54,957 bases of DNA from Candidatus Chlorohelix allophototropha (GTDB lineage Bacteria; Chloroflexota; Chloroflexia; Chloroheliales; Chloroheliaceae), in NCBI RefSeq assembly GCF_030389965.1, contig NZ_CP128403.1, positions 1 through 54,957 on the forward strand, written 5' to 3'. The notes beneath the pieces are model-generated. The model was given only the letters and a program-made list of their open reading frames with translations. It ran no database searches and was not told the origin of the DNA. Positions within the stretch are counted from its first letter, which is position 1. Every line of letters starts with the position of its first letter. The position numbers were made by a program, and so were the translations under genes. This document shows positions 19,630 to 51,124 of this stretch, in pieces.

Positions 19630-19811
19630 TATACCACGCGCCAATAAGCTGACTACCTCTTTTTGGAGCGGCGCTTCGCGCTTTCGGAATTCTCTTTACT
19701 CCTTACCCCTTTGACCTTTCCCTACCCCTAGTTCTTTGGGTTAGTTAATTTAGAGGAAAGAGCGCCAGAGACTCAGAGTTCAGAGGATTCAGAGTTCAGA
19801 GGGGCGCATAG
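19630..19811 (-). repeat. VR-downstream element, copy next to VR2
   Basis: On the minus strand, about 180 bp right after VR2 is nearly the same as 38645-38828 after VR1. Both share CTCTGAA heptamer repeats, GGCGCTCTT, AATTAACTAACCCAAAGAACT, GGTAAGGAGTAAAGAGAATT, a GCGCGAAGCGC hairpin and AGCTTATTGGC. Known DGRs need structured DNA just downstream of the VR for target recognition, and this may serve that purpose. The first 23 bases are still coding. Confidence 0.8.
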
Positions 19812-22632
19812 AGGACGACACCACCACCCGAAAACCAAAATAGTCGTAATCGTTGACAGGGTTGAAGTTGACGCGGAACACACAGGACGCAATAGCTACA
19901 TTGGAGTTGAAAGACCCGCCCCGCAGCACTCGACTATCTCCGCTACCATCCACCACCACTTCCGAAGGCTTCCCATACTTGTTCAAGCACCACTCCCACA
20001 AGTTTCCGCTCATATCCAACGCCCCGCATTTCGCCGCCCCTTGCGGGTACATGCCCACGCCCACCGCCCGGTTCAGCCCCGCCTCTGCGGTATTGGCATA
20101 GCCTTCTCGCCACTCCTCGCCCCATGGGTACTCCCGCGCTTCCGCGCCCCCCTGCGCCGCCCACTGCCATTCCCATTCCGTAGGCAGCCGTATCTGCGCG
20201 TTTTCACCTACTACTAAAAGCTTGCCCTGAGAATCGCCCACATCCGGAAATTGCCAGCCCCTATACCGCTTATTCAACCACCGCCCATATGCTACGCTCT
20301 GATACCACGAGATAGTATCGCGCGGGTTGTTCCACGCTTTGGTGCGCGGTTCATCCAGCTGGTAATCCTTGGGAAAGCCTTGCCACCACTCCCGGTTCTG
20401 GTAGCCGTCCGCCGCTTTCACAAACGCCTCATACTGGGCATAGGTTATCTGGTATTGCCCGATGTAAAACGGCGCTACCTTGAAACTCTCCTTCTCTATT
20501 TCCAGCTTCCCGCCCGGCGCTACCGCCATCCACGCTATCTCCGGCGTGCCGTCTTCTCGCACTCCTATCCCCCTCCGCGTGTCCCCGATTACACTCAATC
20601 TTCGCCCTATCTCATCCCGGCGCAGATGGCTGGTTCGCAACAGATTTGTTTCTCGCAGCAATCGCTCCTGCTCAGGCTCAATGAAATCTTCTTCGAGCGG
20701 GTTAGGTTTCCATTTCAACCGTTCCTGCATCGCATATACCATCAACAACCGCTCCTGTGACCAGCGCCACGCCTCCGGTTTGCCCTGCCACACCCAGTCT
20801 GCCGCTCCGTTCTGCACCTGCCGCCTCAGAATCAGGTCATCTTGGTATTCCTCTATCCATTTCTGCAACCGCCCCCAACTCCTGAACAAAGTCTCGTGCG
20901 CTACCTCAACCTGAGTTTCGTCCTTCACCAGCAACCGCGCCTGCGTAAAAGCCTCCACCAGCGCCAATTCCTCTGCCCCAAAACAGTCGTGCCGTACCCG
21001 CTGCCGCGTTGCCGCAAACTGTCCTTTCACTTCTTCCACTGTCACCAGTTCCCGGAATACCTGCCCCAACAACCGTGTTTTTCCCGCTTCCTCGCCCGGT
21101 AGCTTCTCGAAAACTTGCTCTGCCCTCTTCCCAATTGCCCCTTCTACCTTTCCTAACGCCTCGTAATCCGCATAGGTCAGGCGGTTGTCCCCTCGCGTCA
21201 TCGCTATCTTGTACAACTCATCCAAAAGATATGCCAACAATGCCAGCGAGCCTGCCTCACTCCCGGTGTCTCGTAAAATCAGTGAGGGTAGTCCTCGTTC
21301 AAATTCCAGAGTCGCCATTTCCGCCGGGCGTTCTATCATCTGCAACAATGCACCCGGATTTGGCGCAGACAGGTAGAAAGTACCCTTGTTCAACAGTTCA
21401 GCCAGTATGGGATTTTCGATGGCGCGATGTACAAAGTCGTGCCTTATTGTTACCAACACCCGCATGCTGGGATGCTCCGCCAATTCGCTTAGCATCTGAA
21501 TAAAAGGTTCAATCGTATCTTTCTGTGACAGCGTAAACAATTCCTCGAATTGGTCTATGAACAGCAGCACTTCCGCCCATTCCGGTGCTTTGGCGCTCTC
21601 CAGTGCGGTATTGAGCAGCTTACCTAACGTTGCCGGATTGCGGGTTATTTCTTCCACGAAGGCTTGCTTGTCCTTGGGCAAGGGCGCAAAGCTCTTGTTG
21701 ATGCCATCGAATAAAGCATCAAACGGCTCTTTTCCCGGCGTGAACTGCACCACCCGCCAGTCCTTGCTACCCGGAATAGCGTTCGTTTCCAGTCGTGGCA
21801 ATAGCCCTGCCCCCACCAGCGATGATTTCCCACTCCCAGATGCCCCCACCACCGCTACAAAGCGGCTCTCCACCACCTTCCGCACCAACGCATCGGTTTC
21901 CGCTTCTCGCCCGAAGAAGATGGGCGCATCGGTTCTCTTGAAGGAACGTAGTCCCGGAAAGGGCGAGCCTTCCCACTTCTTAGTGGCTATAATCTGCGTT
22001 TCAGGTGCAAGATTTGGGGATAGAATTGACAGTGGCTGAGCAGCCTGACGTTCCAGCAGTTTCAGCACGGTACTTTCGAGGTCGGTTTCAAATTGTTTCT
22101 TGAAGTCGGCAGGACTCTTGTATTTGTTGACCCCGCGCCGGATTTGTCCGGTAGCGGAATCATAGAACAGGTCGCTCTTGAAAAAACTCTTTACCTTCTT
22201 ATCTTGGGCGATACCTTCATCATCGTCAGAATCAAACAGCTTTTTCTCGGTGCGGCGATAGATGAGTGGGTAGGTCTGGGGATTGTTCAGCGCGTTCAGC
22301 AGTTCGTAATGAGTACCGGAAAGATAATCTACTCCTTTATAACTAAAAGGGGTACCCATCCTCGACCACAATATCACCACCACAATGTCACATTCAGAGG
22401 GTTTGGGTAGCCCAGCGTCAATCGCTTCTTGCGGAGTCATTCTGGCATCCATCGGCACACCTGCACCCGGCTTGTCCCATGCCACCGGACGGAAACTCAG
22501 TTTTTCACGGAACACAGGGCGGTTCAGCAGCCATTCCAGCACTTCCAGCACAGCTTGTCGTTCTTCTGGCACATCGCCGGGTGAGGATACGAACACTCTG
22601 AAAAGAGGTGGTGGTGGTAACTTTTCTGGCAT
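19789..22632 (-). CDS. DUF4062 - nSTAND1 NTPase - FGE-sulfatase protein, DGR target
   Basis: A 947-residue signalling NTPase. Residues 8-100 are DUF4062 (L-F-R-V-F-V-S-S-P-G-D-V-P-E-E-R, a TIR-like fold). The nSTAND1 module opens with W-E-G-S-P-F-P-G-L-R-S-F and has Walker A G-A-S-G-S-G-K-S-S with K269, then Walker B L-L-F-I-D-Q-F-E-E-L-F. A winged helix/linker region follows, then a C-terminal FGE-sulfatase domain (about 690-947) with L-P-T-E-W-E-W-Q-W-A and D-M-S-G-N-L-W-E-W-C. Residues 903-941 are encoded by variable repeat 2. Likely a ligand-sensing, ATP-switched conflict protein. The ATG at 22632 follows GGAGAAGG. It is a tandem paralogue of the gene at 22881. Confidence 0.9.
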   Translation of the reverse strand: MPEKLPPPPLFRVFVSSPGDVPEERQAVLEVLEWLLNRPVFREKLSFRPVAWDKPGAGVPMDARMTPQEAIDAGLPKPSECDIVVVILWSRMGTPFSYKGVDYLSGTHYELLNALNNPQTYPLIYRRTEKKLFDSDDDEGIAQDKKVKSFFKSDLFYDSATGQIRRGVNKYKSPADFKKQFETDLESTVLKLLERQAAQPLSILSPNLAPETQIIATKKWEGSPFPGLRSFKRTDAPIFFGREAETDALVRKVVESRFVAVVGASGSGKSSLVGAGLLPRLETNAIPGSKDWRVVQFTPGKEPFDALFDGINKSFAPLPKDKQAFVEEITRNPATLGKLLNTALESAKAPEWAEVLLFIDQFEELFTLSQKDTIEPFIQMLSELAEHPSMRVLVTIRHDFVHRAIENPILAELLNKGTFYLSAPNPGALLQMIERPAEMATLEFERGLPSLILRDTGSEAGSLALLAYLLDELYKIAMTRGDNRLTYADYEALGKVEGAIGKRAEQVFEKLPGEEAGKTRLLGQVFRELVTVEEVKGQFAATRQRVRHDCFGAEELALVEAFTQARLLVKDETQVEVAHETLFRSWGRLQKWIEEYQDDLILRRQVQNGAADWVWQGKPEAWRWSQERLLMVYAMQERLKWKPNPLEEDFIEPEQERLLRETNLLRTSHLRRDEIGRRLSVIGDTRRGIGVREDGTPEIAWMAVAPGGKLEIEKESFKVAPFYIGQYQITYAQYEAFVKAADGYQNREWWQGFPKDYQLDEPRTKAWNNPRDTISWYQSVAYGRWLNKRYRGWQFPDVGDSQGKLLVVGENAQIRLPTEWEWQWAAQGGAEAREYPWGEEWREGYANTAEAGLNRAVGVGMYPQGAAKCGALDMSGNLWEWCLNKYGKPSEVVVDGSGDSRVLRGGSFNSNVAIASCVFRVNFNPVNDYDYFGFRVVVSSSMRPSEL
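19812..19926 (-). repeat. DGR variable repeat 2 (VR2)
   Basis: 115 bp, gap-free against the template at 38873-38987. Of 21 differences, 15 fall on template adenines. The frame gives G-G-S-F-N-S-N-V-A-I-A-S-C-V-F-R and then V-N-F-N-P-V-N-D-Y-D-Y-F-G-F-R. The first 21 bases are identical to the template. Confidence 0.88.
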
Positions 22633-22678
22633 CAACCTTCTCCAATGTAAAGTTTAGTGGTAACGCAACTGCGGTTTA

Positions 22679-22790: not shown

Positions 22791-22931
22791 ACTAGCTCAC
22801 AACATACTTTACATATATCTTCACCAGCGTTTGCCGAAAATAGCATGTTTTTGAGGCTAATAAAATTGTTTTTAGCTCAGTTATTCGGCAAATAGTACTG
22901 AAGGAATGTGTAAAGCATCATATGAGCTAGT
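22791..22931. mobile_element. 141-bp MITE inserted at the 3' boundary of VR3
   Basis: Ends: ACTAGCTCACAACATACTTT at 22791 and the reverse complement ACTAGCTCATATGATGCTTT at 22931, imperfect inverted repeats that extend inward about 50 bp through TTTGCCGAA / TTCGGCAAA. ACACAACA occurs just outside both ends (22779-22786 and 22935-22942), a possible target duplication. The insertion replaces the end of the FGE gene with 16 codons from the element. Confidence 0.75.
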
Positions 22932-25775
22932 TTCACACAACACCACCCGAAAACCGAAACCGCTGAGACCGCTGTCCGCGCCGCTGCTACCGCGGTACAC
23001 ACAGGACGCAAGGGCAAGAGTGCTGCCGAAAGAGCCACCTCGCACCACTCGAGAGTCGTCACTATCGTCCACCGCCACTTCCTCCGGCTTCTGGTACTTG
23101 TTCAAGCACCACTCGCGCAAGTTCCCGCTCATATCTAACGCCCCGCATTTCGCCGCTCCCTGCGGATACATTCCCACTGCCGTTACTCGGTTCAAGCCCG
23201 CTCCCTCGGTATTAGCGTAACCCTCTTGCCACCCACCCCACGGGTATTTGCGTTCTTCCTCGCCACCTTGCGCTGCCCACTGCCACTCCCACTCGGTCGG
23301 CAGCCGTATCTGCGCGTTTCCTCCCACCACTAAAGGCTTGCTCCCACCGCCCGGTTGTGCCAATTCCAGACCGCGCAGACGACTATTCACCCAGCGCGTA
23401 AACGCCACGCTCTGATACCACGAAATAGTATCGCGTGGGTAGTTCGTCAAGCGGGTACTTTGGTTGCGTAACTCTTGAGGCTGGTATTTCTTCGGAAAGC
23501 CCTGCCACCACTCCGGGTTCTGATATCCGCCCGGTGCTTGTACGAAAGCCCTGTACTGAGCATAGGTTACTTGGTATTGAGCAATATAGAAAGGTTCTAC
23601 CTTGAAACTTTCTTTTTTGTATTCTATTTTCACTTCCCCACCCGGCGCAACGGGCAGCCACACTATAGCGGGTGTGCCATCTTCCCGCACACCCACTCCC
23701 TGCCGCGTGTCGCCTATAACCCCCAACCGCCGCCCAATCTCATCTCGGCGGTCGTGTGTGGTAGTCAGCTTGTCTTTTTCCCGCAAAAGTCGCGCCTGTT
23801 CCGGCTCGATGAAGGCAAGCTCGGTTGCTTCCGGGGTCCACTCCAACCGTTTCTGCATCGCATACACTGGCTCTAGCCGTTCGTTCAGCCACAACCACGA
23901 GTCGGGTTTGCCCCGCCTTGCCCACTCCGCCGCTCCGTTCTGCACCTGCCGCCGCAGTAGCAAATCATCCCGATAATCCTCTATCCATTTTTTCAACTGC
24001 TCCCAGCTTCGGAACAACTCTTCGTGCGCTACTTCCACCTGCGCTTTGTCCATTACCAGCAATCGTGCTTTGGTAAATGCCTCTACCAGCGCCATTTCCT
24101 CTGCCCCAAAACGGTCATACCCGGCGCGTTGGCGGGTGGCAGTGCCGCGCTCATCCACCTCCACCAGTTCCCGGAAGACCTGACCCAGCAACTGCTTTTT
24201 GGCTTCTTCCTGGCCCGGCAACTTCTCGAAAGTCTGCTCCGCTCGCCTGCCGATTGCGCCCTTTACTCCACCCAGCGCGTTGTAATCCGCATAAGTCAGG
24301 CAACGGTCGTGTCGGGTGTCTGCAACCTTATACAGTTCGTCCAGCAGGTACGCCAGCAACGCCAACGAACCCGCATCGCTGCCCATATCATGCAATATAT
24401 CGGCGCGTAGTCCGGGCGCAAATTCCAGCGCGGCTATTTCCGCCGGACGCTCAATCATCAGAGACAAAGCAGCATGGGTGGGCGCAGAGAGATAAAATGT
24501 ACCCTGATTGAGTAACTCCGCCAGCAGGGGGTTTTCAACGGCGCGATGCACAAAGTCATGGCGTATTGTAACCACCACCCGTAAGCGAGGCTGCTCAGCC
24601 AAGGCGCTTAACATCCGGGCAAAGGGTTCCACCGAATCTTTCTGTGTCGGAGCAAACAGTTCCTCGAACTGGTCAATGAACAGCAATATCTCCGCCCATT
24701 CCGGCTTATCCGCCAGCACCCGTAGCAACTGCTTTACAGCTTCCTGTGGCGATTGCACTAACTTCTGCGCCAACGGGTGAGGCTCTTCGTCCAACAGCGG
24801 GGCAAGCTTCACCGCCAGCGCCAGAAAGGGGTCATTGCCCAGCTCTCCGGGTGTAAAGCGCAACCCGTTCCAACCCTTGCCCTGCTCATAATCGGGCAGC
24901 AACCAGTCCTTACTTCCGGTATCGGCATCACTGATAGCGTTCGCGGCTAAGCGAGGCAACAAGCCTGCTCCCACCAACGATGATTTGCCGCTGCCCGATG
25001 CGCCCACCACTGCCACGAAGCGGCTCTCTTTTACCCGCTTGACCAGTGCATCGGTTTCCGTCTCACGTCCGAAGAAGATGGGGGTATCGGCTCGCCGGAA
25101 AGCGCGTAAGCCGGGAAAGGGCGAACCTTCCCACTTTTTAGTGGTGATGACAGGCTCATTCGGCTTTATAACAGGCGCAACCGGACGCTCAGGCGGACGC
25201 TCCAACAAGCGTTTTACGATGTCTTCTAGGTCGGTCTCAAATTCTTTTTTGAACTTAGCAGGGCTGGCGTATTTTTTCACGCTGCGCCGAATTTGTCTGA
25301 TGGCGGGATTTTTGAACAATTCACTGTCGAAGAAGTTTTGTACCTTCTTGTATTGCGCTATGCCTTCATCATCGTCAGCCTCAAATAGCTTTTTCTCGTC
25401 ACGGCGGTAGATTAGTGTAAAGGTCTGGGGGTTGCTTAGGGCATCTAGCAGTTCGTAATGAGTGCCGGAGAGGTAATCCACCCCATCGTTATGCTTATAA
25501 GGCGTTCCCATTCGCGACCACAGAATTACCACCACAATGTCGCATTCAGAGGGTTTGGGTAGCCCGGCGTTAATCGCTTCCTGTGGAGACATATTGGCAG
25601 GCATAGCCGTACCAGCTCCTGGCTTGTCCCATGCCACCACTCGAAAGTTCACCTTTTCACGTAAAAGGGGACGGTTGGGCAGACCCTCCACTACTTCCAG
25701 TACAGCCTGTCGTTCTTCCGGCACATCTCCGGGTGAGGATACAAATACTCTGAAAAGAGGTGGGTTTTCTGGCAT
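22881..25775 (-). CDS. DUF4062 - nSTAND1 NTPase - FGE-sulfatase protein, paralogue with MITE-derived tail
   Basis: A 964-residue paralogue of the protein at 19789 with the same order: DUF4062 (5-105), nSTAND1 with Walker A G-A-S-G-S-G-K-S-S (K264) and L-L-F-I-D-Q-F-E-E-L-F, linker, then FGE-sulfatase (about 700-947). Variable repeat 3 encodes residues 911-947. The last 17 residues are E then T-S-S-Y-D-A-L-H-I-P-S-V-L-F-A-E, read from the MITE. The ATG at 25775 is preferred over 25781 because GGAGA lies 7 bases before it. The promoter region is duplicated together with the gene, so the pair arose by tandem duplication of the whole unit. Confidence 0.9.
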   Translation of the reverse strand: MPENPPLFRVFVSSPGDVPEERQAVLEVVEGLPNRPLLREKVNFRVVAWDKPGAGTAMPANMSPQEAINAGLPKPSECDIVVVILWSRMGTPYKHNDGVDYLSGTHYELLDALSNPQTFTLIYRRDEKKLFEADDDEGIAQYKKVQNFFDSELFKNPAIRQIRRSVKKYASPAKFKKEFETDLEDIVKRLLERPPERPVAPVIKPNEPVITTKKWEGSPFPGLRAFRRADTPIFFGRETETDALVKRVKESRFVAVVGASGSGKSSLVGAGLLPRLAANAISDADTGSKDWLLPDYEQGKGWNGLRFTPGELGNDPFLALAVKLAPLLDEEPHPLAQKLVQSPQEAVKQLLRVLADKPEWAEILLFIDQFEELFAPTQKDSVEPFARMLSALAEQPRLRVVVTIRHDFVHRAVENPLLAELLNQGTFYLSAPTHAALSLMIERPAEIAALEFAPGLRADILHDMGSDAGSLALLAYLLDELYKVADTRHDRCLTYADYNALGGVKGAIGRRAEQTFEKLPGQEEAKKQLLGQVFRELVEVDERGTATRQRAGYDRFGAEEMALVEAFTKARLLVMDKAQVEVAHEELFRSWEQLKKWIEDYRDDLLLRRQVQNGAAEWARRGKPDSWLWLNERLEPVYAMQKRLEWTPEATELAFIEPEQARLLREKDKLTTTHDRRDEIGRRLGVIGDTRQGVGVREDGTPAIVWLPVAPGGEVKIEYKKESFKVEPFYIAQYQVTYAQYRAFVQAPGGYQNPEWWQGFPKKYQPQELRNQSTRLTNYPRDTISWYQSVAFTRWVNSRLRGLELAQPGGGSKPLVVGGNAQIRLPTEWEWQWAAQGGEEERKYPWGGWQEGYANTEGAGLNRVTAVGMYPQGAAKCGALDMSGNLREWCLNKYQKPEEVAVDDSDDSRVVRGGSFGSTLALASCVYRGSSGADSGLSGFGFRVVLCETSSYDALHIPSVLFAE
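22931..23045 (-). repeat. DGR variable repeat 3 (VR3), degenerate
   Basis: Gap-free alignment to the template, with 23 changes at template adenines but also about 14 at other bases plus a lost end (template TCC reads GAA, then the MITE starts). It gives G-G-S-F-G-S-T-L-A-L-A-S-C-V-Y-R. The excess of non-adenine changes suggests it has not been rewritten for a long time. Confidence 0.75.
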
Positions 25776-25821
25776 TAACATTCTCCAGCATGAAGTTTAG
25801 CTGTAACGCAACTGCGGTTTA

Positions 25822-35499: not shown

Positions 35500-38400
35500 A
35501 TGCCAACCCTTTTCATCTCATACAAACGGGGAACAACCGTAGTCGCGCCCTTGATGGAGAAGTTGAAAGAAACTGGCTACCGCCTGTGGTTCGACCGGGA
35601 GGACATTCATCTGGGCGACCCAAGCTGGAAGGCTAGAATTGACGCAGGATTGGAGCAATGCGAAGGGGTAATTCTGTGTATCTCTCCGGCAGCGTGTCAG
35701 TCCGAGCCTATAAGGTACGAAGTGTGCAAGGCATTGGAATTTAAGAAGCCTATATTCCCAATAATCTTGGAGAAAGTGGAGAGCGCCAGCGCCGCAATAG
35801 CGGATTTGGGACTACCGGGGGAACAGCACTTAGAAGATTTCACGGATGTGACGCGCTGGCAGGAAAATCTGGAGAAGCTGCGGAAGGGTCTGGAAGCGCA
35901 GGGCTTGCGGGTAACACGGCACGACCGTCGTAAGGAGCGCAATACACAGGAATACGCCCTGCACCAGCGCTACCTGAAAAAGCTGGCAGAGCGGGTAGGG
36001 CTGCTGAACTTGGCGCACGTAAACGAGGCAGAGAAGCGTGGCATCGAACTGGAGAAAGTGTACGTGGACTCGCCCACAGCTTTGAGTATCAGCCTAGAGG
36101 TGAAGGATTGGCGGGTGATTGACTGGTGGCTCTCGCGAAGTGACCAGCCTGCACGCGAGTTGCCGGGTGAGGACAAAGCGCCGAAGCGCACCAGAGTGGA
36201 GGAAATGGGCTACGAACGCTCTCCCTTTGAGGTTCTAATCGGGGGAGTGGATGAAGAGATAGCACGCTATCGGGAAGAAAACCCTCATGCAAAACCTGAT
36301 GAGAAATATTCTTGGAATAATCCTTGGAACAACGGGGTCAAAGAAAACCAGACCCATTTGCACCTGACGCATTTAGCGGCAGGGTGTGACCGGTTGGTAA
36401 TCTTGGGAGCGCCGGGCAGCGGGAAAAGCACCTTCGTGAAGTATCTGGCATTGTGCTTGGCAGGGGCGGGGATTGAGGGCTGGAATCGGGCTGCCAATCT
36501 GAACTCGCTAGAGAACTGGACACACGGGGCATTAACGCCGGTGTACGTTGAACTGCGCCGCTTTGTGGCATCAACCTACTTTCCCTCGAAGATAAGCGAA
36601 CCGGCAACCGCCCAACACCTATGGAAATACATCGAAGGGGAGCTATTGGGCGAGGGATTGGAAACCTATGCCTCTGAGCTTGAATATGACTTGGAACAAG
36701 GACACGCCCTGCTAATACTGGACGGGCTGGACGAAGTACCCTACCCGGAAGGCAAACTCAAAGAACGGCAGACGCAAATAATCAACTTGGCGCAGAGTTT
36801 GCACACTCGCTTTGCAGGCAGCCGGGTAATCGTCGCCAGCCGCCCTTATGCCTATCAGGGTTGGAGCTTGCCCGACTATGAGGCGGTGACAATAAGCGAA
36901 TTTGAAGAAGAACACCGGATAGAATTAGCCAGCCGCCTATATCGAGCAATGGGCTTGAGTGAGGAAGAAGCGCAGGCAAAGGCGGAGGCGCTGAACGAGC
37001 AGCTAGAAGAAATAGATGATGAGTTGAAAGACCGCCCCTTGTTCGTGACTTTGATGGCAACCTTGTATCTGAAGGGTGGAGAAGACGGGTTGCCAAGTCG
37101 AAAGGGGGCATTGTACCGGGAGAGCATCCTGCTGCTGTTGGAACGGTGGGGCAAGAGCAAACCGGGTTCACCATCACTGGTGGAGATACTGGGGGATAAA
37201 AGCGTAGCGGACTTATACGGGCGATTGGCAGCCTTGGCATATGCAGTGCAGGGGAGTAGCGAAGGAAGGGAACAAGCGGCAGAGATAGATGAAAGCTTGT
37301 TGTACAAACATCTCAAACCATTGGGACGAGAGGTAGCGGCGGAACTAATCCCATATTTGTGCGAAAACGCAGGGGTGCTGGTAGCGCCGGGACAGCGAGG
37401 AGAAGAAGAAATCTTTCACTATGCCCACCGAAGCTTTCAAGAGTATCTAGCGGCGGTACATCTGGTGAAGCTATGTCGGGACAGCGATAGCTTCAAGCCG
37501 GTGCAGGCACAGCTATTGGAAAAGCCGGAAACGTGGCGAGTAGTGTGCTGTTTTGTGGGGGATGTGCTGGCGGATACGAAGAAGAAAAGTGAGATTTGGT
37601 TACTACTGGCAGATTTGTTGGAAGAAGAAGAAATACCTGAAAAAAGGGAAGACCTGCGCTGGTGGCTAATATGGCTGGCAGCAACGATAGCGCAGGAGCA
37701 GGAAATCTGTGGGCTGGAAAAAGCCAAACGCAGCAATGACCGAAGCACCCTAAAAAAGATGGTGGAATGGCTGAAAGCTTTGCTGGGAACGGTACAGGCG
37801 TTGGGAGCGGTGGAACGAGCGGAGTGCGGACGGGCATTGGGCTTGTTGGGAGACCTGCGCAAAGGGGTGGGGACGAAGCCGTATAAATTGGCAGGACGGG
37901 AGGTAGAACTGCCAGAACTAGAATGGTGCGACATAGGAGCGTCGGAAGGTGGGAAGTTTGTGATGGGTTCAGATGACTGGGAAGATAACCCGCGCCGGGA
38001 AATGGAGTTGGGGTACAGCTACCGAATGACGAAGTACCTAATCACATACGGGCAGTATCAGACATTTGCGGAGAGTGGAGAATACGAGCAGGCGGAATGG
38101 TGGGAGGGTTTCCCAGAGGAATATCAGCCGCAGAAGCTAGACCAGGACTATATGAAAGAGAACAACCGACCGCGAGACTATGTAAGTTGGTATCAGTCGG
38201 TGGCGTTTACGCGATGGTTGACGGTGAAATACCGAGCAGCGGGAGAGATAGGGGTAAACGAAGAAATACGGCTGCCAACGGAGGCAGAATGGGAGTATGC
38301 GGCAAGGGGAGTTGACGAGCGGAAGTACCCCTATGGGAACGAGTTTGATGGGACGAAGGGAAATACAGATGAAACGGGGATAGGGGCAACGAGCGCGGTG

Positions 38401-38667
38401 GGGAGCTTCCCGGATGGGGCATCGCCATTTGGGGTGCTGGATATGAGTGGGAACGTGTGGGAGTGGTGCTTGAATAAGTACAAAGAGCCGGAGGAAGTGG
38501 GGGTGGACGAGAGCGGGGACAATCGAGTGCTGCGGGGCGGTTCTTGCCTCGACGATGGAGCTCGTGCGTCCTGTGTGTTCCGCAACTACGACTACCCTTA
38601 CGGCGATGACTACTTTATTGGTTTTCGGTTGGTGGTGTGTTCCGCTATGCGCCACTCTGAACTCTGA
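35500..38667 (+). CDS. TIR - NACHT NTPase - FGE-sulfatase protein, DGR target
   Basis: A 1055-residue immune-type sensor. Residues 1-130 are a TIR domain (T-L-F-I-S-Y-K-R, L-W-F-D-R-E-D, C-I-S-P-A-A, with E74 in R-Y-E-V-C at the NADase glutamate position). The NACHT-type NTPase has Walker A G-A-P-G-S-G-K-S-T (K309) and Walker B L-L-I-L-D-G-L-D-E-V (D408), then S-R-P-Y-A, and H-R-S-F-Q-E-Y-L-A-A, typical of NACHT proteins. A helical region follows, then FGE-sulfatase (about 800-1055) with L-P-T-E-A-E-W-E-Y-A and D-M-S-G-N-V-W-E-W-C. Residues 1011-1049 are variable repeat 1. The expected mode is ligand binding by the variable FGE face, NTP-driven assembly, then TIR cleavage of NAD+ (inference from family). 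Confidence 0.9.
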   Translation: MPTLFISYKRGTTVVAPLMEKLKETGYRLWFDREDIHLGDPSWKARIDAGLEQCEGVILCISPAACQSEPIRYEVCKALEFKKPIFPIILEKVESASAAIADLGLPGEQHLEDFTDVTRWQENLEKLRKGLEAQGLRVTRHDRRKERNTQEYALHQRYLKKLAERVGLLNLAHVNEAEKRGIELEKVYVDSPTALSISLEVKDWRVIDWWLSRSDQPARELPGEDKAPKRTRVEEMGYERSPFEVLIGGVDEEIARYREENPHAKPDEKYSWNNPWNNGVKENQTHLHLTHLAAGCDRLVILGAPGSGKSTFVKYLALCLAGAGIEGWNRAANLNSLENWTHGALTPVYVELRRFVASTYFPSKISEPATAQHLWKYIEGELLGEGLETYASELEYDLEQGHALLILDGLDEVPYPEGKLKERQTQIINLAQSLHTRFAGSRVIVASRPYAYQGWSLPDYEAVTISEFEEEHRIELASRLYRAMGLSEEEAQAKAEALNEQLEEIDDELKDRPLFVTLMATLYLKGGEDGLPSRKGALYRESILLLLERWGKSKPGSPSLVEILGDKSVADLYGRLAALAYAVQGSSEGREQAAEIDESLLYKHLKPLGREVAAELIPYLCENAGVLVAPGQRGEEEIFHYAHRSFQEYLAAVHLVKLCRDSDSFKPVQAQLLEKPETWRVVCCFVGDVLADTKKKSEIWLLLADLLEEEEIPEKREDLRWWLIWLAATIAQEQEICGLEKAKRSNDRSTLKKMVEWLKALLGTVQALGAVERAECGRALGLLGDLRKGVGTKPYKLAGREVELPELEWCDIGASEGGKFVMGSDDWEDNPRREMELGYSYRMTKYLITYGQYQTFAESGEYEQAEWWEGFPEEYQPQKLDQDYMKENNRPRDYVSWYQSVAFTRWLTVKYRAAGEIGVNEEIRLPTEAEWEYAARGVDERKYPYGNEFDGTKGNTDETGIGATSAVGSFPDGASPFGVLDMSGNVWEWCLNKYKEPEEVGVDESGDNRVLRGGSCLDDGARASCVFRNYDYPYGDDYFIGFRLVVCSAMRHSEL
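38530..38644 (+). repeat. DGR variable repeat 1 (VR1)
   Basis: 115 bp without gaps against the template 229 bases downstream. 22 differences: 18 at template adenines (to G, T or C) and 4 elsewhere. Asn codons of the template become Leu, Asp, Arg, Tyr, Gly and Phe. The last 16 bases, TTGGTGGTGTGTTCCG, are identical and mark the initiation end. Closest VR to the template. Confidence 0.92.
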
Positions 38668-38828
38668 ATTCTCTGAACTCTGAGCCTCTGGCGCTCTTTT
38701 CTCTAAATTAACTAACCCAAAGAACTGGGGAAAGGGTAAAGTCAAGGGGGTAAGGAGTAAAGAGAATTCCGAAAGCGCGAAGCGCCGCCCGAAAAAGGGG
38801 TAGTCAGCTTATTGGCTCGTGATATAAT
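38645..38828 (+). repeat. VR-downstream element, copy next to VR1
   Basis: About 184 bp shared with the region after VR2 (19630-19811, minus). Contains four CTCTGAA-type heptamers, GGCGCTCTT, a GCGCGAAGCGC mini-hairpin, and ends at TATAAT. Only the first 23 bases are coding. Confidence 0.8.
38823..38828 (+). promoter_or_regulatory. -10 box TATAAT before the template repeat
   Basis: A perfect TATAAT 45 bases before the template, followed by hairpin CCCGGT-CAGGCT-ACCGGG (38849-38866). It could drive the noncoding template RNA; the -35 region is not convincing. Confidence 0.4.
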
Positions 38829-38872
38829 GGGGTTGCTGGGTTTATTAGCCCGGTCAGGCTACCGGGAAGGTT

Positions 38873-38987
38873 CTGCGGGGCGGGTCTTTCAACAACAATG
38901 AAGCTAATGCGTCCTGTGCGTACCGCAACAACAACAACCCTAACAACGATAACAACAATATTGGGTTTCGGTTGGTGGTGTGTTCCG
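38873..38987 (+). repeat. DGR template repeat (TR)
   Basis: Reads, in the frame of the FGE domains, G-G-S-F-N-N-N-E-A-N-A-S-C-A-Y-R, then N-N-N-N-P-N-N-D-N-N-N, then I-G-F-R-L-V-V. It has 15 AAC/AAT codons, with no start codon and no gene of its own. AAY codons at variable positions are the standard template design of DGRs, since adenine changes there reach many residues but never a stop. No RT or Avd gene follows: 38988-39241 is noncoding. Confidence 0.93.
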
Positions 38988-39241
38988 ATGACCTGCCTAC
39001 CCTTCAGAGGGCGCAACCTTCAGGGGTTGAGCTTGCTTCCAGAAATGTCGTGCGATTACGGTTTCACGTCCGAGGAGAAGGCGGCAGGATAGCGCCGGTG
39101 GGTCTGGTCTGCGCGTGCAAACGCCAGGCACATATCTAATAACGGGCGCAGCCTGGATTCGCTCCCGCTGGGCCTTTACTCTTTCTCAAGCCTTGGAAGG
39201 TTATAAAAGCAGACAGGCTCCATGCGCGCTAAGGAGTGGTG
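38988..39241. other. Noncoding stretch after the template repeat
   Basis: 254 bases where a DGR would usually carry its RT gene or template-RNA spacer. No RT motif is present. It includes the direct repeat 39174-39206 and the RBS of the DUF433 gene. It may be the spacer part of the template RNA. Confidence 0.5.
39174..39206. repeat. Direct repeat flanking the DUF433/DUF5615 module, copy 1
   Basis: CTTTACTCTTTCTCAAGCCT then TGGAAGGTT; repeated at 39831-39863 with a few changes. Copy 2 includes the stop codon of the SLOG-SLATT gene, so copy 1 looks like a duplicate of that gene's end. Confidence 0.65.
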
Positions 39242-39475
39242 ATGAGTTTATTGCTAGAGCGGATTACAATTAATCCTGAGATTAATCACGGACAACCCTG
39301 TATTCGTGGGCTGCGTTATCCGGTGGAATTATTGCTGGAATTGCTGAGTTCCGGGATGAGTTACGAAGAAATCCTGTCAGATTACCCAGACCTTGAACGG
39401 GAAGATATACTCGCCGCGCTGGAATTTGCCACGCACCTCAGTCGCACCAAACGCATTTTTACCGACATCTCATGA
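39242..39475 (+). CDS. DUF433 antitoxin-type protein
   Basis: A 77-residue protein of the DUF433 family: I-T-I-N-P-E-I-N-H-G-Q-P-C-I-R-G, then L-L-E-L-L-S-S-G-M-S-Y-E-E-I-L-S-D-Y-P-D-L-E-R-E-D-I, the standard helix-turn-helix-like layout. It pairs with the DUF5615 protein whose start overlaps its stop (ATGA). The ATG at 39242 is chosen from AAGGAG five bases upstream; an in-frame GTG lies six bases earlier. Confidence 0.9.
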   Translation: MSLLLERITINPEINHGQPCIRGLRYPVELLLELLSSGMSYEEILSDYPDLEREDILAALEFATHLSRTKRIFTDIS

Positions 39476-39825
39476 ATTTTCTGGTTGATGCTCATCTACC
39501 GCGCCGAGTGGCGTACTGGCTTAAAGCGGCAGGGCACCAAGCAATCCACACCCTTGATTTGCCTGAAGGCAATCGCACTACCGACGCTGCGTTAAACAGC
39601 CTCTCGCTAGAGAACCAGGCAATCCTTGTGACCAAAGACTCAGACTTTGTAAACTCATTCATTCTACAGCGTCAGCCCTATAAGCTGCTGCTCATTTCTA
39701 CCGGAAATGTGACTAATAACGTGTTGGAAAGCCTAATTCAGCACAATTTGGCTTTATTGGTCAATCTTTTTGAGAGTCATAATTTCCTAGAACTGACCAG
39801 AGATGGGCTGGTTTTACACTCCTGA
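39472..39825 (+). CDS. DUF5615 PIN-like protein (toxin partner)
   Basis: A 117-residue PIN-like protein: M-N-F-L-V-D-A-H-L-P-R-R-V-A, an acidic D6 at the first active-site position, then T-D-A-A-L-N and V-T-K-D-S-D-F carrying the central acidic residues (D62, D64). PIN domains are metal-dependent ribonucleases; DUF433-DUF5615 pairs are common toxin-antitoxin-like modules in Cyanobacteria and Chloroflexota. Coupled to the gene upstream by a 4-base overlap. Confidence 0.9.
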   Translation: MNFLVDAHLPRRVAYWLKAAGHQAIHTLDLPEGNRTTDAALNSLSLENQAILVTKDSDFVNSFILQRQPYKLLLISTGNVTNNVLESLIQHNLALLVNLFESHNFLELTRDGLVLHS

Positions 39826-39830
39826 AATCT

Positions 39831-39863
39831 CTTTGCTACTCTTTCTCAGGCATTGGAAGGTTC
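39831..39863. repeat. Direct repeat flanking the DUF433/DUF5615 module, copy 2
   Basis: CTTTGCTACTCTTTCTCAGGC then ATTGGAAGGTT; see 39174-39206. Confidence 0.65.
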
Positions 39864-41723
39864 TGAACCAACCGTTTCAGGCTTGCCACCCTGAGCGGAA
39901 GAACCTTTGCCTCTCTGTTGCCCGTTTGCGCTGGAGTTACCCGTTTTGGCAGCATCGGAGTTATCCTCCCCCTTCTCGGCTTGGTGCTTCTGCAAATCAG
40001 ATAGCGCAGTTTGCATCTGTTGCACCCACCCAATCTGTTCGGACTGAAGCGTGTTCTCAGTAATATCCACCAGTTTGTCAATATTAACCTGTTCCGCCTG
40101 CTGGTCTGGGGTTAAAGCCACCCACCAATCCCGGATATTCTCCAAACTCTGAGCAGCCCGGTTATACTGCTTGAGGGTATTAGTGACCTGCATATATTCC
40201 AAATACGTAGTGATAGCGCCCACCAAGGCGGTTATCACCGGAATAAGCAACTCCTTACTGATTGCCGCTATGACGGTACTGGTTCCACTAAATAAGAAAA
40301 TAGCCCATTGCAACCTGAAGCGCAGCCTGTCCAGTCCCTTAGCCTTCTTGCGGTAATAAATGCGCTGGTTCTCCAGCCTGAACTCTAGGTATTCTTCTGG
40401 CGTGAGGAAGCTAACCCCATCATCGGTGGCGCTGGCTTTCTCCTCCGGCTTTTTCTTCTTCACCTTCGTCTTATCCGGTTCTTGCAAGGAGGAAGTGGTA
40501 ACCTCGCTCTCCAGCCACTTATGACTAATAGCCTCCAGCATATTTGAGAGATACATCTCAGGAGTAGTGCCGTCCTTCTTTGCTCTCTTGAGACTATAAG
40601 AACCGGAGCGAGTGCGGTAGCGGAACATCTCGCGTTTGACCGCATCGGTAGCCGCTCTGACCAATACCCACTTGGAACCCATATTGAAGAAATTTGCCCC
40701 GGCAATTAATACCGTCACAATCGCAGGCACTCCCAATACCAGAAAATACAAAGTATCGGTAACCCAACTATCCCACTTGACCTGTTTGGCGAAAGTCTGC
40801 AACACTGCAAAGCCTGCCCCAAACACCCCCAATATCAGGATAGCCAATTGCAATAGCTGAAACCTGTTCTTGAAGCGCTCGGCGTTATGGCTGTAGAGCT
40901 TGTAACGTTCTTTGGCTTTTTGGATAATCTTCTCTCTGGAAGAGTTTAACTGGAGCATAATTTGCCGTCCGAACTCTTCCGGTGTTTCGGTTAGGTTGAA
41001 GAAATGCAAATTACCGTCTGCCACAATCTCCGCTAGCATAGGGTCTTCCACGAAATCCGGTTCGGACTCGACCAGCTCGACCAGCTTGTCCGCTAAATCG
41101 CCGCTCCCCTTCACCACAATAATCGGATAGTCGCGCCGGGTGCAAGCCAGAATCTCTCGTTTGGCTATATCATCTCCGCCCACCAAAATTGCCAGCGGCT
41201 GCGCCTTATCGGATAAAGTCGCTACCAGATTAATCCGGCTGGCACTCTCATCCCCAGCATTAGCCCCTTTTACCAGAACGAAATGGGAATGGTTGGGTTC
41301 GAGCGGCCATTTTCCGTCTTGTGGGGCAGCAATAGGCGGGAGCAGCGCCCTGCCTTCAGGCGCGATACCGAGCATAGGGATTTTGACATTCCGGTCGGCG
41401 AAACTTCTGCCCAACAAATCAACCAGCGTGGAAGCAATACCTTCATCCACCAGCGTAACGGACTTACCGGCTGAGAGTTGTGCTACTACACGGGCAAACC
41501 CTCGACTGAATAACTGAAACAGGCGCGATTCCAATTGGGGGATAGCCAGGTCGGCATTTCCGAGAACAAGAATAACGTTTGAAGGTGGGTTCAGACTCAA
41601 AGCTTCCAGAACCTTGCCCGGTTCATCACCGGGGGTCATTGACAGCAGGAGCGCTTTATTACCGTTGGGAAAAGCAATCGTCTGTGCCGTGCCGGCAGGT
41701 GGCGGAGTCTGAGTATCACTCAT
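39846..41723 (-). CDS. SLOG (TRPM/LSDAT-type) protein with two SLATT/DUF4231 membrane modules
   Basis: A 625-residue protein. Residues about 15-240 form a Rossmann-like SLOG domain of the LSDAT type (V-I-L-V-L-G-N-A-D, S-V-T-L-V-D-E-G-I-A-S-T-L, P-I-I-V-V-K-G-S-G-D-L-A), which senses or processes nucleotides. Two membrane modules follow, helices at about 300-320 and 333-355 and at about 490-530, each with the R-Y-x-x-R / Y-Y-R-K-K-A-linked layout of SLATT/DUF4231. SLOG-SLATT proteins are predicted conflict systems in which a nucleotide signal opens a membrane pore. ATG at 41723 is preferred over 41798: GAGG lies 9 bases upstream. Confidence 0.82.
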   Translation of the reverse strand: MSDTQTPPPAGTAQTIAFPNGNKALLLSMTPGDEPGKVLEALSLNPPSNVILVLGNADLAIPQLESRLFQLFSRGFARVVAQLSAGKSVTLVDEGIASTLVDLLGRSFADRNVKIPMLGIAPEGRALLPPIAAPQDGKWPLEPNHSHFVLVKGANAGDESASRINLVATLSDKAQPLAILVGGDDIAKREILACTRRDYPIIVVKGSGDLADKLVELVESEPDFVEDPMLAEIVADGNLHFFNLTETPEEFGRQIMLQLNSSREKIIQKAKERYKLYSHNAERFKNRFQLLQLAILILGVFGAGFAVLQTFAKQVKWDSWVTDTLYFLVLGVPAIVTVLIAGANFFNMGSKWVLVRAATDAVKREMFRYRTRSGSYSLKRAKKDGTTPEMYLSNMLEAISHKWLESEVTTSSLQEPDKTKVKKKKPEEKASATDDGVSFLTPEEYLEFRLENQRIYYRKKAKGLDRLRFRLQWAIFLFSGTSTVIAAISKELLIPVITALVGAITTYLEYMQVTNTLKQYNRAAQSLENIRDWWVALTPDQQAEQVNIDKLVDITENTLQSEQIGWVQQMQTALSDLQKHQAEKGEDNSDAAKTGNSSANGQQRGKGSSAQGGKPETVGSEPSNA

Positions 41724-41996
41724 GGGTTTAGCCTCGCTCTGCAACAAATTGATGCTTTGAAGCGTTGTATGCTGTTTACGCCGAGTAATGGCTGGCATAC
41801 AAGCAAAAGTTTAATCACCATACTGCTCGACTTTAATATTATGCAAGCGATTCTAGTTTATTGCAACCCGTCAGTTGTACCAAATAAGGTTTTGTGGGAG
41901 TAGAAACCTTTACTATACCTCAAGCCATTTATTGACATATAGCGAAGAATACCATAATATGCCGATAGATACCATTTTAGTATGGAGGCACATATT

Positions 41997-46661: not shown

Positions 46662-47978
46662 ATGGAAGGAAATTACAATGCCGCTTTATTCAAGAGCCAT
46701 CTTGCTTTTCTGGGTCTGCCAGAAGACTATAATAGACATTTTAAGAAGTGGACACCCTTAGATCCCCAAACTGGTTGCCCCAAATTGGATAGCACAGGCA
46801 ACGTCAAAACCGCGCTATGTGTAGCAAAACCGCATACCGCCAGTGTACATGCCGAGGCAGTCTGGACCCAAATTAACCAGAGTTCTGAACTGAATAAGAG
46901 CGGCAATCCCAAAAAGCCATTTAACAAATCAATCGAAGTTGTTTCGAACCTGCAAATTGACTTCGAAGACCCTAAAAACCCAGAAAAAGTAAAAGAATTC
47001 GGACTTGCTTTTGGCAAGAAAGTATCTGCCTTATTGGGCTATCCCGAAGAGTTGCCGGTTTTGGATTCCGGCGCTGGTTGTCATATTGAATTCCCGATTA
47101 ATTCGATTATCACGGCTGATTTTTGCGGTGGTGACTTGGTTAATCAGGCGGTAAGGCAAGTAATCGAAAAACTCATAAAGCCCCTCTTTGACGAAACGGC
47201 ACAGGAGTTTTGTTTGACCGGAACTATAAAGTTGGAAGGCTTTGATATTTCACGTATTCTATCTTTAGCTGGAACATTCCGCCCACCTAACCCAAAGAAG
47301 GATATCGAGGGCAGGGCCTTTCTGGCGCAAGGCTACGCTCGTAAATGGCTTAACTATGACGAAACCAACCCGCCGAAACGCTGGGAGAATGAACAGCTTA
47401 CCCGCTTAATCCTGGAAGAAATCGAGGAAATCAAACGCGAAGAAAGCCAGAAACAAGCCCAAAAGGAAACTCGAAAAAAGGCCGATGTGACCAGTGCTAG
47501 TGGTATAGTTGGACTTCACACAAAAGACTTGAAATACTTTCTGGCTTGGCTACAGAAGCAAGCCGCAACTATGCCAATAACCGGCGATAGGTCAAAGAAC
47601 TTCTATCGGCTTATAGATAGAGCGTGGAGAGCAACCCAAAACGAAGCTTTGATAGGTGAAAACGCCGACTTTATAGACCAATTGACCGGTGGTAAATACA
47701 CCTCGCAGAGGTCTAATACAGAGGTTGAGGTTAAAAGAGCGCTTCAACGGATTGTAGCAAGCTGGAAAGCAAAGAAACATAAAGAAGCACGTGCCAGACT
47801 AGATACGCTGGCAGGGGTGAAAGTTGATAAACGTTATAATACTGCCTTTATGCCAGATATTGAACTTACTAAAGCTGTGACTATGCTTAAATCTGGCAAG
47901 GGAACTGGTAAGACTGAAGCTGCTGCTCGGTTAATAGCCAGTTTGCCAAAAACTGCCAAGGTTCTTTGTATTTCACAT
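46662..47978 (+). pseudogene. CyRepA1-family plasmid replication protein, 5' part
   Basis: The first 439 codons of a large replication protein. The N-terminal half resembles a primase-like/archaeo-eukaryotic domain (D-F-E-D-P-K-N-P, L-D-S-G-A-G-C-H-I-E-F-P, R-P-P-N-P-K-K); the helicase part begins with Walker A K-S-G-K-G-T-G-K-T-E and ends V-L-C-I-S-H at the insertion. ATG at 46662 with GGAGG before it. Split by the IS at 47979; the reading resumes exactly at 49204 after the 9-bp target duplication. Confidence 0.85.
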
Positions 47979-49194
47979 TTGCTACCGTACACAATTAGAA
48001 ATCCTCTAAAAGAAAAGGGATAAAGGCGACTGGTAAGGGTAAATGTTCATTCAAAAAATGCTCAAGCAGGTTCAAACCTAAATTGAACAGGCTCAAATCC
48101 AGTCGTTCGGTGCGATGAATGACCCGGTTCCAGCCTTCAGCTAAAGCTATCGTACCCAGATGTACAATCCAAAGATAAGCCAGACAAGCCGCTAACAATA
48201 ACCTTTCTAGCCGTTTAGGGTCATCCAAATGGCTCTTGTCCAGCCGAAACCCTCGGCTCTTGCTATCGGAAAAGAAGGTTTCAATCCTAAACCTCTTTTT
48301 GTAGTACCGGATTGCTTCCTGGGCTAGAGCCAAATTACTCACCAGATAAAGTGGCTCACGGTAAGGCTTTTGCCAGACCGCTATGACCAGTACTGGTCCG
48401 TACTCGTGTTTGCTGAATGCTACGCCGCTCTGACTCACTACCTGACCAGGCTGAACCCCTAACTTACTGATGGCATAATGAGCTTGTTCATCCAACCAGA
48501 CCTGGCTATTTTTAGCAGTACGACAGACATACTGCCAACCGTAATAATCTAACCGTCTTAACAAACGACAGCCATCGAATTCACCATCACCCAAAAAGAC
48601 TACTTGGCTACCAGACGGAACCAACGAGTGAACTTGCTTTAACAATCTGATGTGCAAAGCTTGAGCTAAATGTCCCTTTTTAGCCTTAACCACCAACCAA
48701 CCCAAAGGTAAAGCCCGCCCCTGATATACTACACTGATTACTAAGCCCATTCCACCAGCACCAACCTGACTGCCATCTATCACCAGTACCAGTGGACAAT
48801 GACACAGGCTACTCAGCAATTGTTTGGCGAAAGGAGCATACACCACTTTTTGGTTAAAGTTATCATTTTTGAGCAATCGGCGCATTCGGATGATGCGGCT
48901 TTCCCGTTTAGTTTTATCTGGCACTTTGGCGGCGATATTAGGCAACGCACTATGCCGACTACCTACAATCCCACTGATCACCATCGCTAGAATTGTTAAA
49001 TATTGTAATTCGCGCCCCTGCGCTTGTGGGTGGAGTTGCAACAATTGCTGTTTTATGGCACGATGTCGGCGAAGGTTGTCACTCATTTTGGTATCCTTTT
49101 GCTTTCTACTTTGGTCGGTAAGAAAACTACAGTTTACCACTCTGCCTCAACCTTCTCCTCCTTTTCCTCTCCTTTATATCTGTACGGTAGCAAA
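47979..49194 (-). mobile_element. IS4-like insertion sequence, about 1.2 kb
   Basis: Terminal inverted repeats TTGCTACCGTACA (47979-47991) and TGTACGGTAGCAA (49181-49193). ATTTCACAT lies on both sides (47970-47978 and 49195-49203): a 9-bp target duplication. It carries one transposase gene filling most of the element. Inserted in the CyRepA1 gene. Confidence 0.92.
47995..49086 (-). CDS. IS4-family DDE transposase
   Basis: A 363-residue DDE transposase. First Asp in L-V-I-D-G-S-Q-V, second in F-L-G-D-G-E-F-D-G, and Glu in Y-Y-K-K-R-F-R-I-E-T-F-F-S-D-S-K-S-R-G-F, the Y-(2)-R-(3)-E-(6)-K signature of the IS4 family. ATG at 49086 (M-S-D-N-L-R-R-H-R) after AAGGAT; a longer frame to 49140 lacks an RBS. 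Looks intact, so the element may be recent. Confidence 0.92.
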   Translation of the reverse strand: MSDNLRRHRAIKQQLLQLHPQAQGRELQYLTILAMVISGIVGSRHSALPNIAAKVPDKTKRESRIIRMRRLLKNDNFNQKVVYAPFAKQLLSSLCHCPLVLVIDGSQVGAGGMGLVISVVYQGRALPLGWLVVKAKKGHLAQALHIRLLKQVHSLVPSGSQVVFLGDGEFDGCRLLRRLDYYGWQYVCRTAKNSQVWLDEQAHYAISKLGVQPGQVVSQSGVAFSKHEYGPVLVIAVWQKPYREPLYLVSNLALAQEAIRYYKKRFRIETFFSDSKSRGFRLDKSHLDDPKRLERLLLAACLAYLWIVHLGTIALAEGWNRVIHRTERLDLSLFNLGLNLLEHFLNEHLPLPVAFIPFLLEDF

Positions 49195-51045: not shown

Positions 51046-51124
51046 TTGCGCTAGCAGCACACATACCTGTGTAGTCGACCCTTATGTATATATATATAAT
51101 AATCGTGTTGACTACAAAAGAGAC
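50949..51124. repeat. Two tandem copies of an 88-bp unit
   Basis: 50949-51036 and 51037-51124 are identical by eye. Each contains the near-perfect inverted repeat TGTAGTCGAC / GTTGACTACA around an AT-rich TATATATATATAATAATC. 88 is not a multiple of three, so the duplication shifts the frame and the CyRepA1 gene now stops early in unit 2 instead of reading on to 51179. Confidence 0.9.

What the first reader, a model, noticed from the sequence alone, without database searches (positions are those of the whole stretch)
35500..38667. Immune-type sensors with a hypervariable FGE tip: TIR-NACHT-FGE and DUF4062-nSTAND1-FGE
All three targets share one logic: an N-terminal TIR or TIR-like DUF4062 domain, a STAND/NACHT NTPase switch and a C-terminal FGE domain whose last 40 residues are the variable repeat. 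In known STAND proteins the C-terminus senses the trigger. A targeted-mutation system acting on the sensor face of several NTPases would be a prokaryotic counterpart of a diversifying receptor. DGR-linked conflict NTPases have been proposed before; an RT-less plasmid set using two different NTPase types is the new element here.
Basis: partly seen in the sequence, partly recalled or inferred. Interest (0 to 1): 0.9.

Follow-up and report, generated by a model that had tools for sequence, protein, structure and literature searches.

The report
Frozen hypermutation repertoire of immune-like sensors
A filamentous green bacterium carries sixteen immune-receptor-like proteins whose tips were rewritten by a targeted-mutation system, but the enzyme that does the rewriting is missing from its closed genome, so the repertoire now looks frozen.

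Summary
ORF 35500-38667 is TIR-NACHT-FGE, and the plasmid has two DUF4062-nSTAND1-FGE genes. Each ends in a variable repeat (VR) derived from a template repeat (TR) at 38870-38986. Across 15 VRs in the genome, 60% of template-adenine sites differ against 15% of other sites (p=9e-72). Third codon bases are kept. This is the signature of a diversity-generating retroelement (DGR).

The window is the whole 55-kb plasmid of 'Ca. Chlorohelix allophototropha' (contig sizes match the closed genome). That genome has 17 such FGE domains in 16 proteins and two TR copies, but no DGR reverse transcriptase (RT). Only a 21-residue RT fragment remains, beside a transposase. A same-family relative keeps the intact cassette.

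Best reading: effector-switch-sensor proteins of immune type, diversified until recently, whose mutator has been lost. DGR-diversified NACHT/nSTAND1 sensors in multicellular bacteria are already published (PMC10907252), as are RT-less remnants. What is added is a closed genome with many targets, an autonomous TR RNA gene on a plasmid and no RT. Defence function and current activity are untested.

The parts
35500..38667 (+). TIR-NACHT-FGE target protein (1055 aa); TIR 5-127, NACHT 298-481 (Walker A GAPGSGKS 303-310, Walker B LLILDGLDE), FGE 816-1045
   Evidence: Pfam; motifs; catalytic-type Glu aligned to AbTIR and related TIRs
38527..38643 (+). Variable repeat (VR) of TIR-NACHT-FGE; 18/31 template-A sites changed, 5/86 others
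38801..38828 (+). Promoter-like site (TAGTCA-16-TATAAT with extended -10) upstream of the TR; a TACAAT-type -10 sits at the same place in relative G002
   Evidence: consensus only; 0.4 expected by chance; alignment
38870..38986 (+). Template repeat TR1, with AAC/AAT codons at the variable positions
38987..39166 (+). Conserved spacer of the template RNA downstream of TR1; 73% with same-family relative G002 over TR plus spacer, 8 compensatory pairs among 3 sequences
19789..22635 (-). DUF4062-nSTAND1-FGE target protein A (948 aa)
   Evidence: Pfam; motifs
19813..19929 (-). VR of target A
22881..25781 (-). DUF4062-nSTAND1-FGE target protein B (966 aa)
   Evidence: Pfam; motifs
22932..23048 (-). 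VR of target B

Best explanation
These are single-chain immune-type receptors of a filamentous Chloroflexota bacterium. Inferred mechanism: the FGE (C-type-lectin-fold) tip binds an invader molecule, the NACHT or nSTAND1 module oligomerises, and the N-terminal TIR or TIR-like DUF4062 domain depletes NAD+ and kills the infected cell. Shown by sequence: the tips were diversified by a DGR. A template RNA made from TR1 was copied with errors at adenines, and the copies replaced the VRs of many dispersed targets in trans. Shown: the enzyme for this (the DGR RT) is absent from the closed genome, while a same-family relative keeps the full cassette. Inferred: the RT was lost recently, through deletion between target and TR and IS insertion, leaving a standing repertoire that can no longer be rewritten unless an RT returns.
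For: DGR signature over 15 VRs: A sites 277/465 changed vs 194/1290 others, odds ratio 8.3, p 9e-72. At AAN template codons in 13 VRs, 134/169 had a changed first or second base but 154/169 kept the third base. No DGR RT by Pfam RVT_1, by the relative's RT or by an 11-sequence DGR-RT profile; the RTs that ring carry QG..SP group II motifs, not IGN.TSQ. RT fragment at chromosome 2 639897-639968, 14/21 identical to the relative's RT with an in-frame stop, next to a transposase and 3.6 kb from the second TR. Relative G002: target, RT, TR and spacer in order. Recency: the plasmid VR and a chromosome 1 VR are preceded by 200 nt with 0 differences, yet differ at 28/117 sites inside. TR2-specific non-A bases T41 and A56 occur in 0 of 15 VRs, so the plasmid TR is the better template. 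Effector and switch motifs intact. FGE model pLDDT 93.9, Foldseek match to TvpA. DUF4062 antiphage NADase precedent (PMC13174449).
Against: No functional data on defence, NAD+ cleavage or ligand binding. Several targets are TIR-FGE, DUF4062-FGE or kinase-FGE without a NTPase, so a broader signalling role is possible. Absence of RT is for one isolate; other cells may keep it. The RT fragment is short, and its genome-wide E-values are weak (0.03 to 0.1).
Confidence: 0.6

Rival explanations
1. The system is alive: the RT acts in trans from cells, plasmids or phages of the same population and was simply not in the sequenced isolate, as seen for degraded DGR loci in Thiohalocapsa PB-PSB1.
For: TR1 is intact with promoter-like site and a spacer showing compensatory changes; VR divergence next to identical flanks looks recent; PB-PSB1 populations mix intact and IS-broken RT loci (PMC10907252).
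Against: Closed genome lacks RT; RT remnant suggests decay; TR2 is already truncated and unused; no match to the spacer in viral contigs.
Confidence: 0.25
2. The variable FGE tips serve environmental or developmental signalling (kinase-FGE, TIR-FGE adaptors) and not antiviral defence.
For: At least three targets are protein kinases with FGE and one carries TPR repeats; cyanobacterial DGR targets have been read as regulatory (PMC7517822).
Against: Most targets carry TIR or DUF4062, families with demonstrated antiphage NADases (PMC13174449); NACHT and nSTAND1 precedents in defence (PMC10907252).
Confidence: 0.3
3. VR diversity arose by ordinary divergence or gene conversion among FGE paralogues, with no retroelement.
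For: Paralogues share flanks, and sequence sharing between replicons clearly happens.
Against: Changes concentrate at template adenines with third bases preserved; the upstream control shows no such bias; a same-family genome has a full DGR with matching TR and spacer.
Confidence: 0.02
4. A group II intron RT in the same genome services the orphan TR in trans.
For: Four intact group II-type RT copies are present.
Against: I know of no such case; they lack DGR-type motifs, and the relative uses a dedicated RT.
Confidence: 0.03

Closest known systems
DGRs diversifying CLec + STAND NTPase sensors, RT clade 5D of Dore et al. 2024 (PMC10907252)
   Same: C-terminal VR in FGE/CLec domain, central NACHT or nSTAND1, sometimes TIR at the N-terminus, multicellular hosts including filamentous Chloroflexi, trans targets, IS-degraded loci
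   Different: Here no RT anywhere in a closed genome, 17 FGE target domains in one genome matched by a single TR lineage, TR as a stand-alone plasmid locus, DUF4062 as N-terminal domain
Treponema denticola TvpA DGR (PMC4891356; structure 2Y3C)
   Same: FGE-type CLec variable proteins, dispersed remote VRs, strains with leftover targets
   Different: T. denticola targets are mostly surface lipoproteins, 2-7 per isolate; RT-less strains there also lack the TR
Swarozyc (DUF4062 TIR-like NADase defence; PMC13174449)
   Same: DUF4062 TIR-like domain with a conserved Glu
   Different: The text of that report has no mention of nSTAND or formylglycine domains; here DUF4062 is fused to nSTAND1 and a variable FGE tip
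Antiviral STAND (Avs) and bacterial NACHT proteins (as described in PMC10907252)
   Same: N-effector, STAND switch, C-terminal sensor
   Different: Sensor is a DGR-variable FGE domain, not TPR-type repeats; activity untested
Bordetella phage BPP-1 DGR
   Same: TR to VR, adenine mutagenesis
   Different: No RT here, no linked Avd gene, immune-type rather than tail-fibre target

Membership tests
Diversity-generating retroelement | TR/VR pair with adenine-specific differences | tested here: met
   277/465 A vs 194/1290 non-A over 15 VRs, p 9e-72; third codon base kept
Diversity-generating retroelement | DGR-type reverse transcriptase | tested here: not met
   None in the closed genome; short fragment only. 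It is a DGR-derived locus, not a complete DGR
Diversity-generating retroelement | VR at the C-terminal end of a CLec/FGE domain | tested here: met
   model and TvpA match
Diversity-generating retroelement | Accessory protein Avd (PF05635 family) at the locus | tested here: not met
   Two PF05635 genes exist, but on contigs C3 and C4, not near a TR; relative G002 shows no separate ORF of 120 aa or more between target and RT
Diversity-generating retroelement | Mutagenic homing observed | not testable with these tools
   Needs reads or an experiment
Antiviral STAND / bacterial NACHT | Effector - STAND NTPase with Walker A and B - C-terminal sensor | tested here: met
   that the tip senses anything is inferred
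Antiviral STAND / bacterial NACHT | Phage protection | not testable with these tools
   No experiment; PADLOC gives only partial domain hits
TIR NADase | Catalytic Glu in the conserved position | tested here: met
   Glu74 aligns with the YE motif of solved bacterial TIRs, including AbTIR; that this is the catalytic Glu is from memory; activity untested
DUF4062 TIR-like NADase (Swarozyc) | DUF4062 with conserved Glu | tested here: inconclusive
   DUF4062 Pfam hits E 2e-6 to 7e-4; GTHYE Glu invariant in 4 of 4; not aligned to KpSwz E97 directly
Formylglycine-generating enzyme | Conserved catalytic cysteine pair | tested here: not met
   In the alignment to 6s07 the FLCHESYC segment falls in VR codons that the TR encodes mainly as Asn; that these are the catalytic cysteines is from memory

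The most novel reading that the evidence does not exclude
The template RNA is now an autonomous plasmid-borne gene that is kept without its own RT, and the sensor repertoire is re-diversified only when an RT arrives from elsewhere (another plasmid, phage or subpopulation). That would be a split, conditional hypermutation system for an immune receptor repertoire.
Probability: 0.15. Interest if true: 0.85.

Novelty: new variant of a known kind. Interest (0 to 1): 0.55.

Why it matters
If right, this is a closed genome in which an adaptive-style receptor repertoire can be seen after its mutator has gone: many effector-switch-sensor and effector-sensor proteins, each with a different tip, all traceable to one template. 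It allows direct tests of whether DGR-diversified FGE tips recognise phage, and of what happens to such a repertoire once the mutator is lost. It also supplies NACHT and nSTAND1 proteins with NADase-type effectors and a VR in one chain, suitable for reconstitution.

Tried and rejected
2) The RT hits on C1, C2 and C4 were first considered as DGR RTs; motifs show group II type. 3) Ordinary divergence of FGE paralogues was rejected by the upstream control. 4) A first FGE model from 17 sequences had low confidence in the VR (pLDDT under 50) and was replaced by a 41-sequence model. 5) Solvent exposure of VR residues could not be computed because no coordinates are released. 6) Search for the template-RNA spacer in viral contigs found nothing; in 400 Chloroflexota genomes only the own genome plus one 3-mismatch hit, probably chance, since the backward control pattern also hit two genomes once each. 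7) The plasmid collection gave only distant partial matches, none above 60% identity. 8) A genome-contig scan gave one relative, an Anaerolineae MAG with 56% identity whose protein stops just before the VR, with no TR or RT on the contig.

Full report
Identity of the sequence. The window is contig C5 of a five-contig genome. The window is therefore taken to be the complete 55-kb plasmid.

Observation. Pfam confirms TIR-NACHT-FGE at 35500-38667 and two DUF4062-nSTAND1-FGE genes at 19789-22635 and 22881-25781 on the minus strand. A direct repeat pairs the 3' end of the first gene (38527-38644) with an intergenic copy (38870-38987) rich in AAC codons. Measured against this TR, 15 VRs in the genome differ at 277 of 465 adenine positions and 194 of 1290 other positions (odds ratio 8.3, p 9e-72). 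In 13 VRs, AAN template codons have a changed first or second base in 134 of 169 cells, but the third base is kept in 154 of 169. The 117 nt just upstream in the same genes show no adenine bias and change most at codon position 3. This is the DGR signature and not ordinary divergence.

Scale. The genome has 18 FGE domains over the Pfam cut-off. Seventeen belong to this family, in 16 proteins; one (C1:948906) does not carry the pattern. Fifteen of the 17 VRs align to the TR without gaps and were counted; the other two have small indels. Architectures: TIR-NACHT-FGE (1), DUF4062-nSTAND1-FGE (3), DUF4062-FGE (1), TIR-FGE (6), TIR-FGE-FGE (1), kinase-FGE (3) and TPR-FGE next to a kinase gene (1). 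C2:1979220 (TIR-FGE) and C1:621965 (kinase-FGE) were assigned by reading the translation, not by Pfam.

Template RNA gene. A second TR copy on chromosome 2 matches window 38747-39138 at 93% over 395 bp. It lacks the 3' end of the spacer that TR1 shares with the relative, and its private non-A bases T41 and A56 appear in none of 15 VRs, so the plasmid copy is the better template. TR1 has a promoter-like site and a downstream spacer with eight compensatory pairs among three sequences. Three sequences are few, and this is only suggestive.

Where is the enzyme? In a genome of the same family (G002), a target with VR, an RT with the DGR motif IGNLTSQ, a TR and the same spacer follow each other. Searches of the own genome with RVT_1, with the G002 RT and with an 11-sequence profile find only group II-type RTs (motifs). 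One exception is a fragment on chromosome 2 (639897-639968) with 14 of 21 residues identical to the G002 RT, an in-frame stop and a transposase at its edge, 3.6 kb from TR2. I read it as an RT remnant; its genome-wide E-values (0.03 to 0.1) are weak on their own, and the pairwise E of 1e-8 is for a single chosen pair. Among 158 genomes of the class, 28 have a DGR RT.

Timing. The VR of plasmid target A and that of a chromosome 1 homologue are preceded by 200 nt with no difference, then differ at 28 of 117 VR sites (18 of 31 at template A), then at 4 of 60. The simplest reading is that the flanks were shared recently and the VRs were rewritten afterwards. Rewriting was therefore recent, and RT loss more recent still, or the RT sits in other members of the population.

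Function. TIR Glu74 aligns with the catalytic region of solved bacterial TIRs. The NACHT and nSTAND1 proteins have Walker A and B motifs, and the DUF4062 GTHYE glutamate is invariant in four proteins. DUF4062 domains are antiphage NADases elsewhere (PMC13174449, a preprint). The FGE domain was modelled with mean pLDDT 93.9 and matches TvpA (TM 0.65) and formylglycine enzymes. DGR variable proteins of this fold display their variable residues on the surface (PMC6328139). I could not compute exposure here. The enzyme's cysteine segment falls within the VR, so catalysis is unlikely. The defence role remains inference.

Comparison with what is known. Dore et al. (PMC10907252) already describe DGR-diversified CLec domains on NACHT and nSTAND1 proteins, some with TIR, in multicellular bacteria including filamentous Chloroflexi, and IS-damaged loci served in trans. 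Remote DGR targets are common in cyanobacteria (PMC7517822), and the FGE-type domain is linked to DGRs in ternary conflict systems (PMC7159879). T. denticola strains with leftover targets but no RT or TR are known (PMC4891356). The general idea is therefore published. New here are the extent of the repertoire, the stand-alone plasmid TR, the RT-less closed genome with an RT fragment, and the DUF4062-nSTAND1-FGE combination, for which I found no prior description in the passages read.

Noticed in passing
window 39849-41798 (-): SLOG (LSDAT_prok) - SLATT_1 - DUF4231 protein close to TR1, a predicted membrane effector of nucleotide-signal defence.
   Followed up: no
window 39236-39825 (+): Two small ORFs resembling a DUF433/DUF5615 toxin-antitoxin pair between the TR and the SLOG gene (judged from the translations, not run against Pfam).
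   Followed up: no
window 1-4657 (+): DUF7380/DUF4209 gene overlapping an N6_N4 DNA methylase, possibly a modification-based defence system.
   Followed up: no
window 50943-51118: Tandem of an 88-nt unit (99% identical) at the end of a Herpes_ori_bp helicase-like ORF.
   Followed up: no
L108:280-3330: Anaerolineae MAG orthologue of TIR-NACHT-FGE (56% identity) whose reading frame stops just before the VR; no TR or DGR RT on the 10.5-kb contig.
   Followed up: partly
L052:353-3889: G002 target with EAD2-TIR-kinase-TPR-FGE in one chain, FGE 57-58% identical to that of the window's TIR-NACHT-FGE.
   Followed up: partly
window 47977-48725: 749 bp identical to chromosome 2 (start of L035), probably a copy of an insertion sequence.
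   Followed up: no
G000 C1:989525, C1:2156863, C2:668623: Three group II intron RT copies with the same scores and frame length, so apparently recently mobile in this genome.
   Followed up: no
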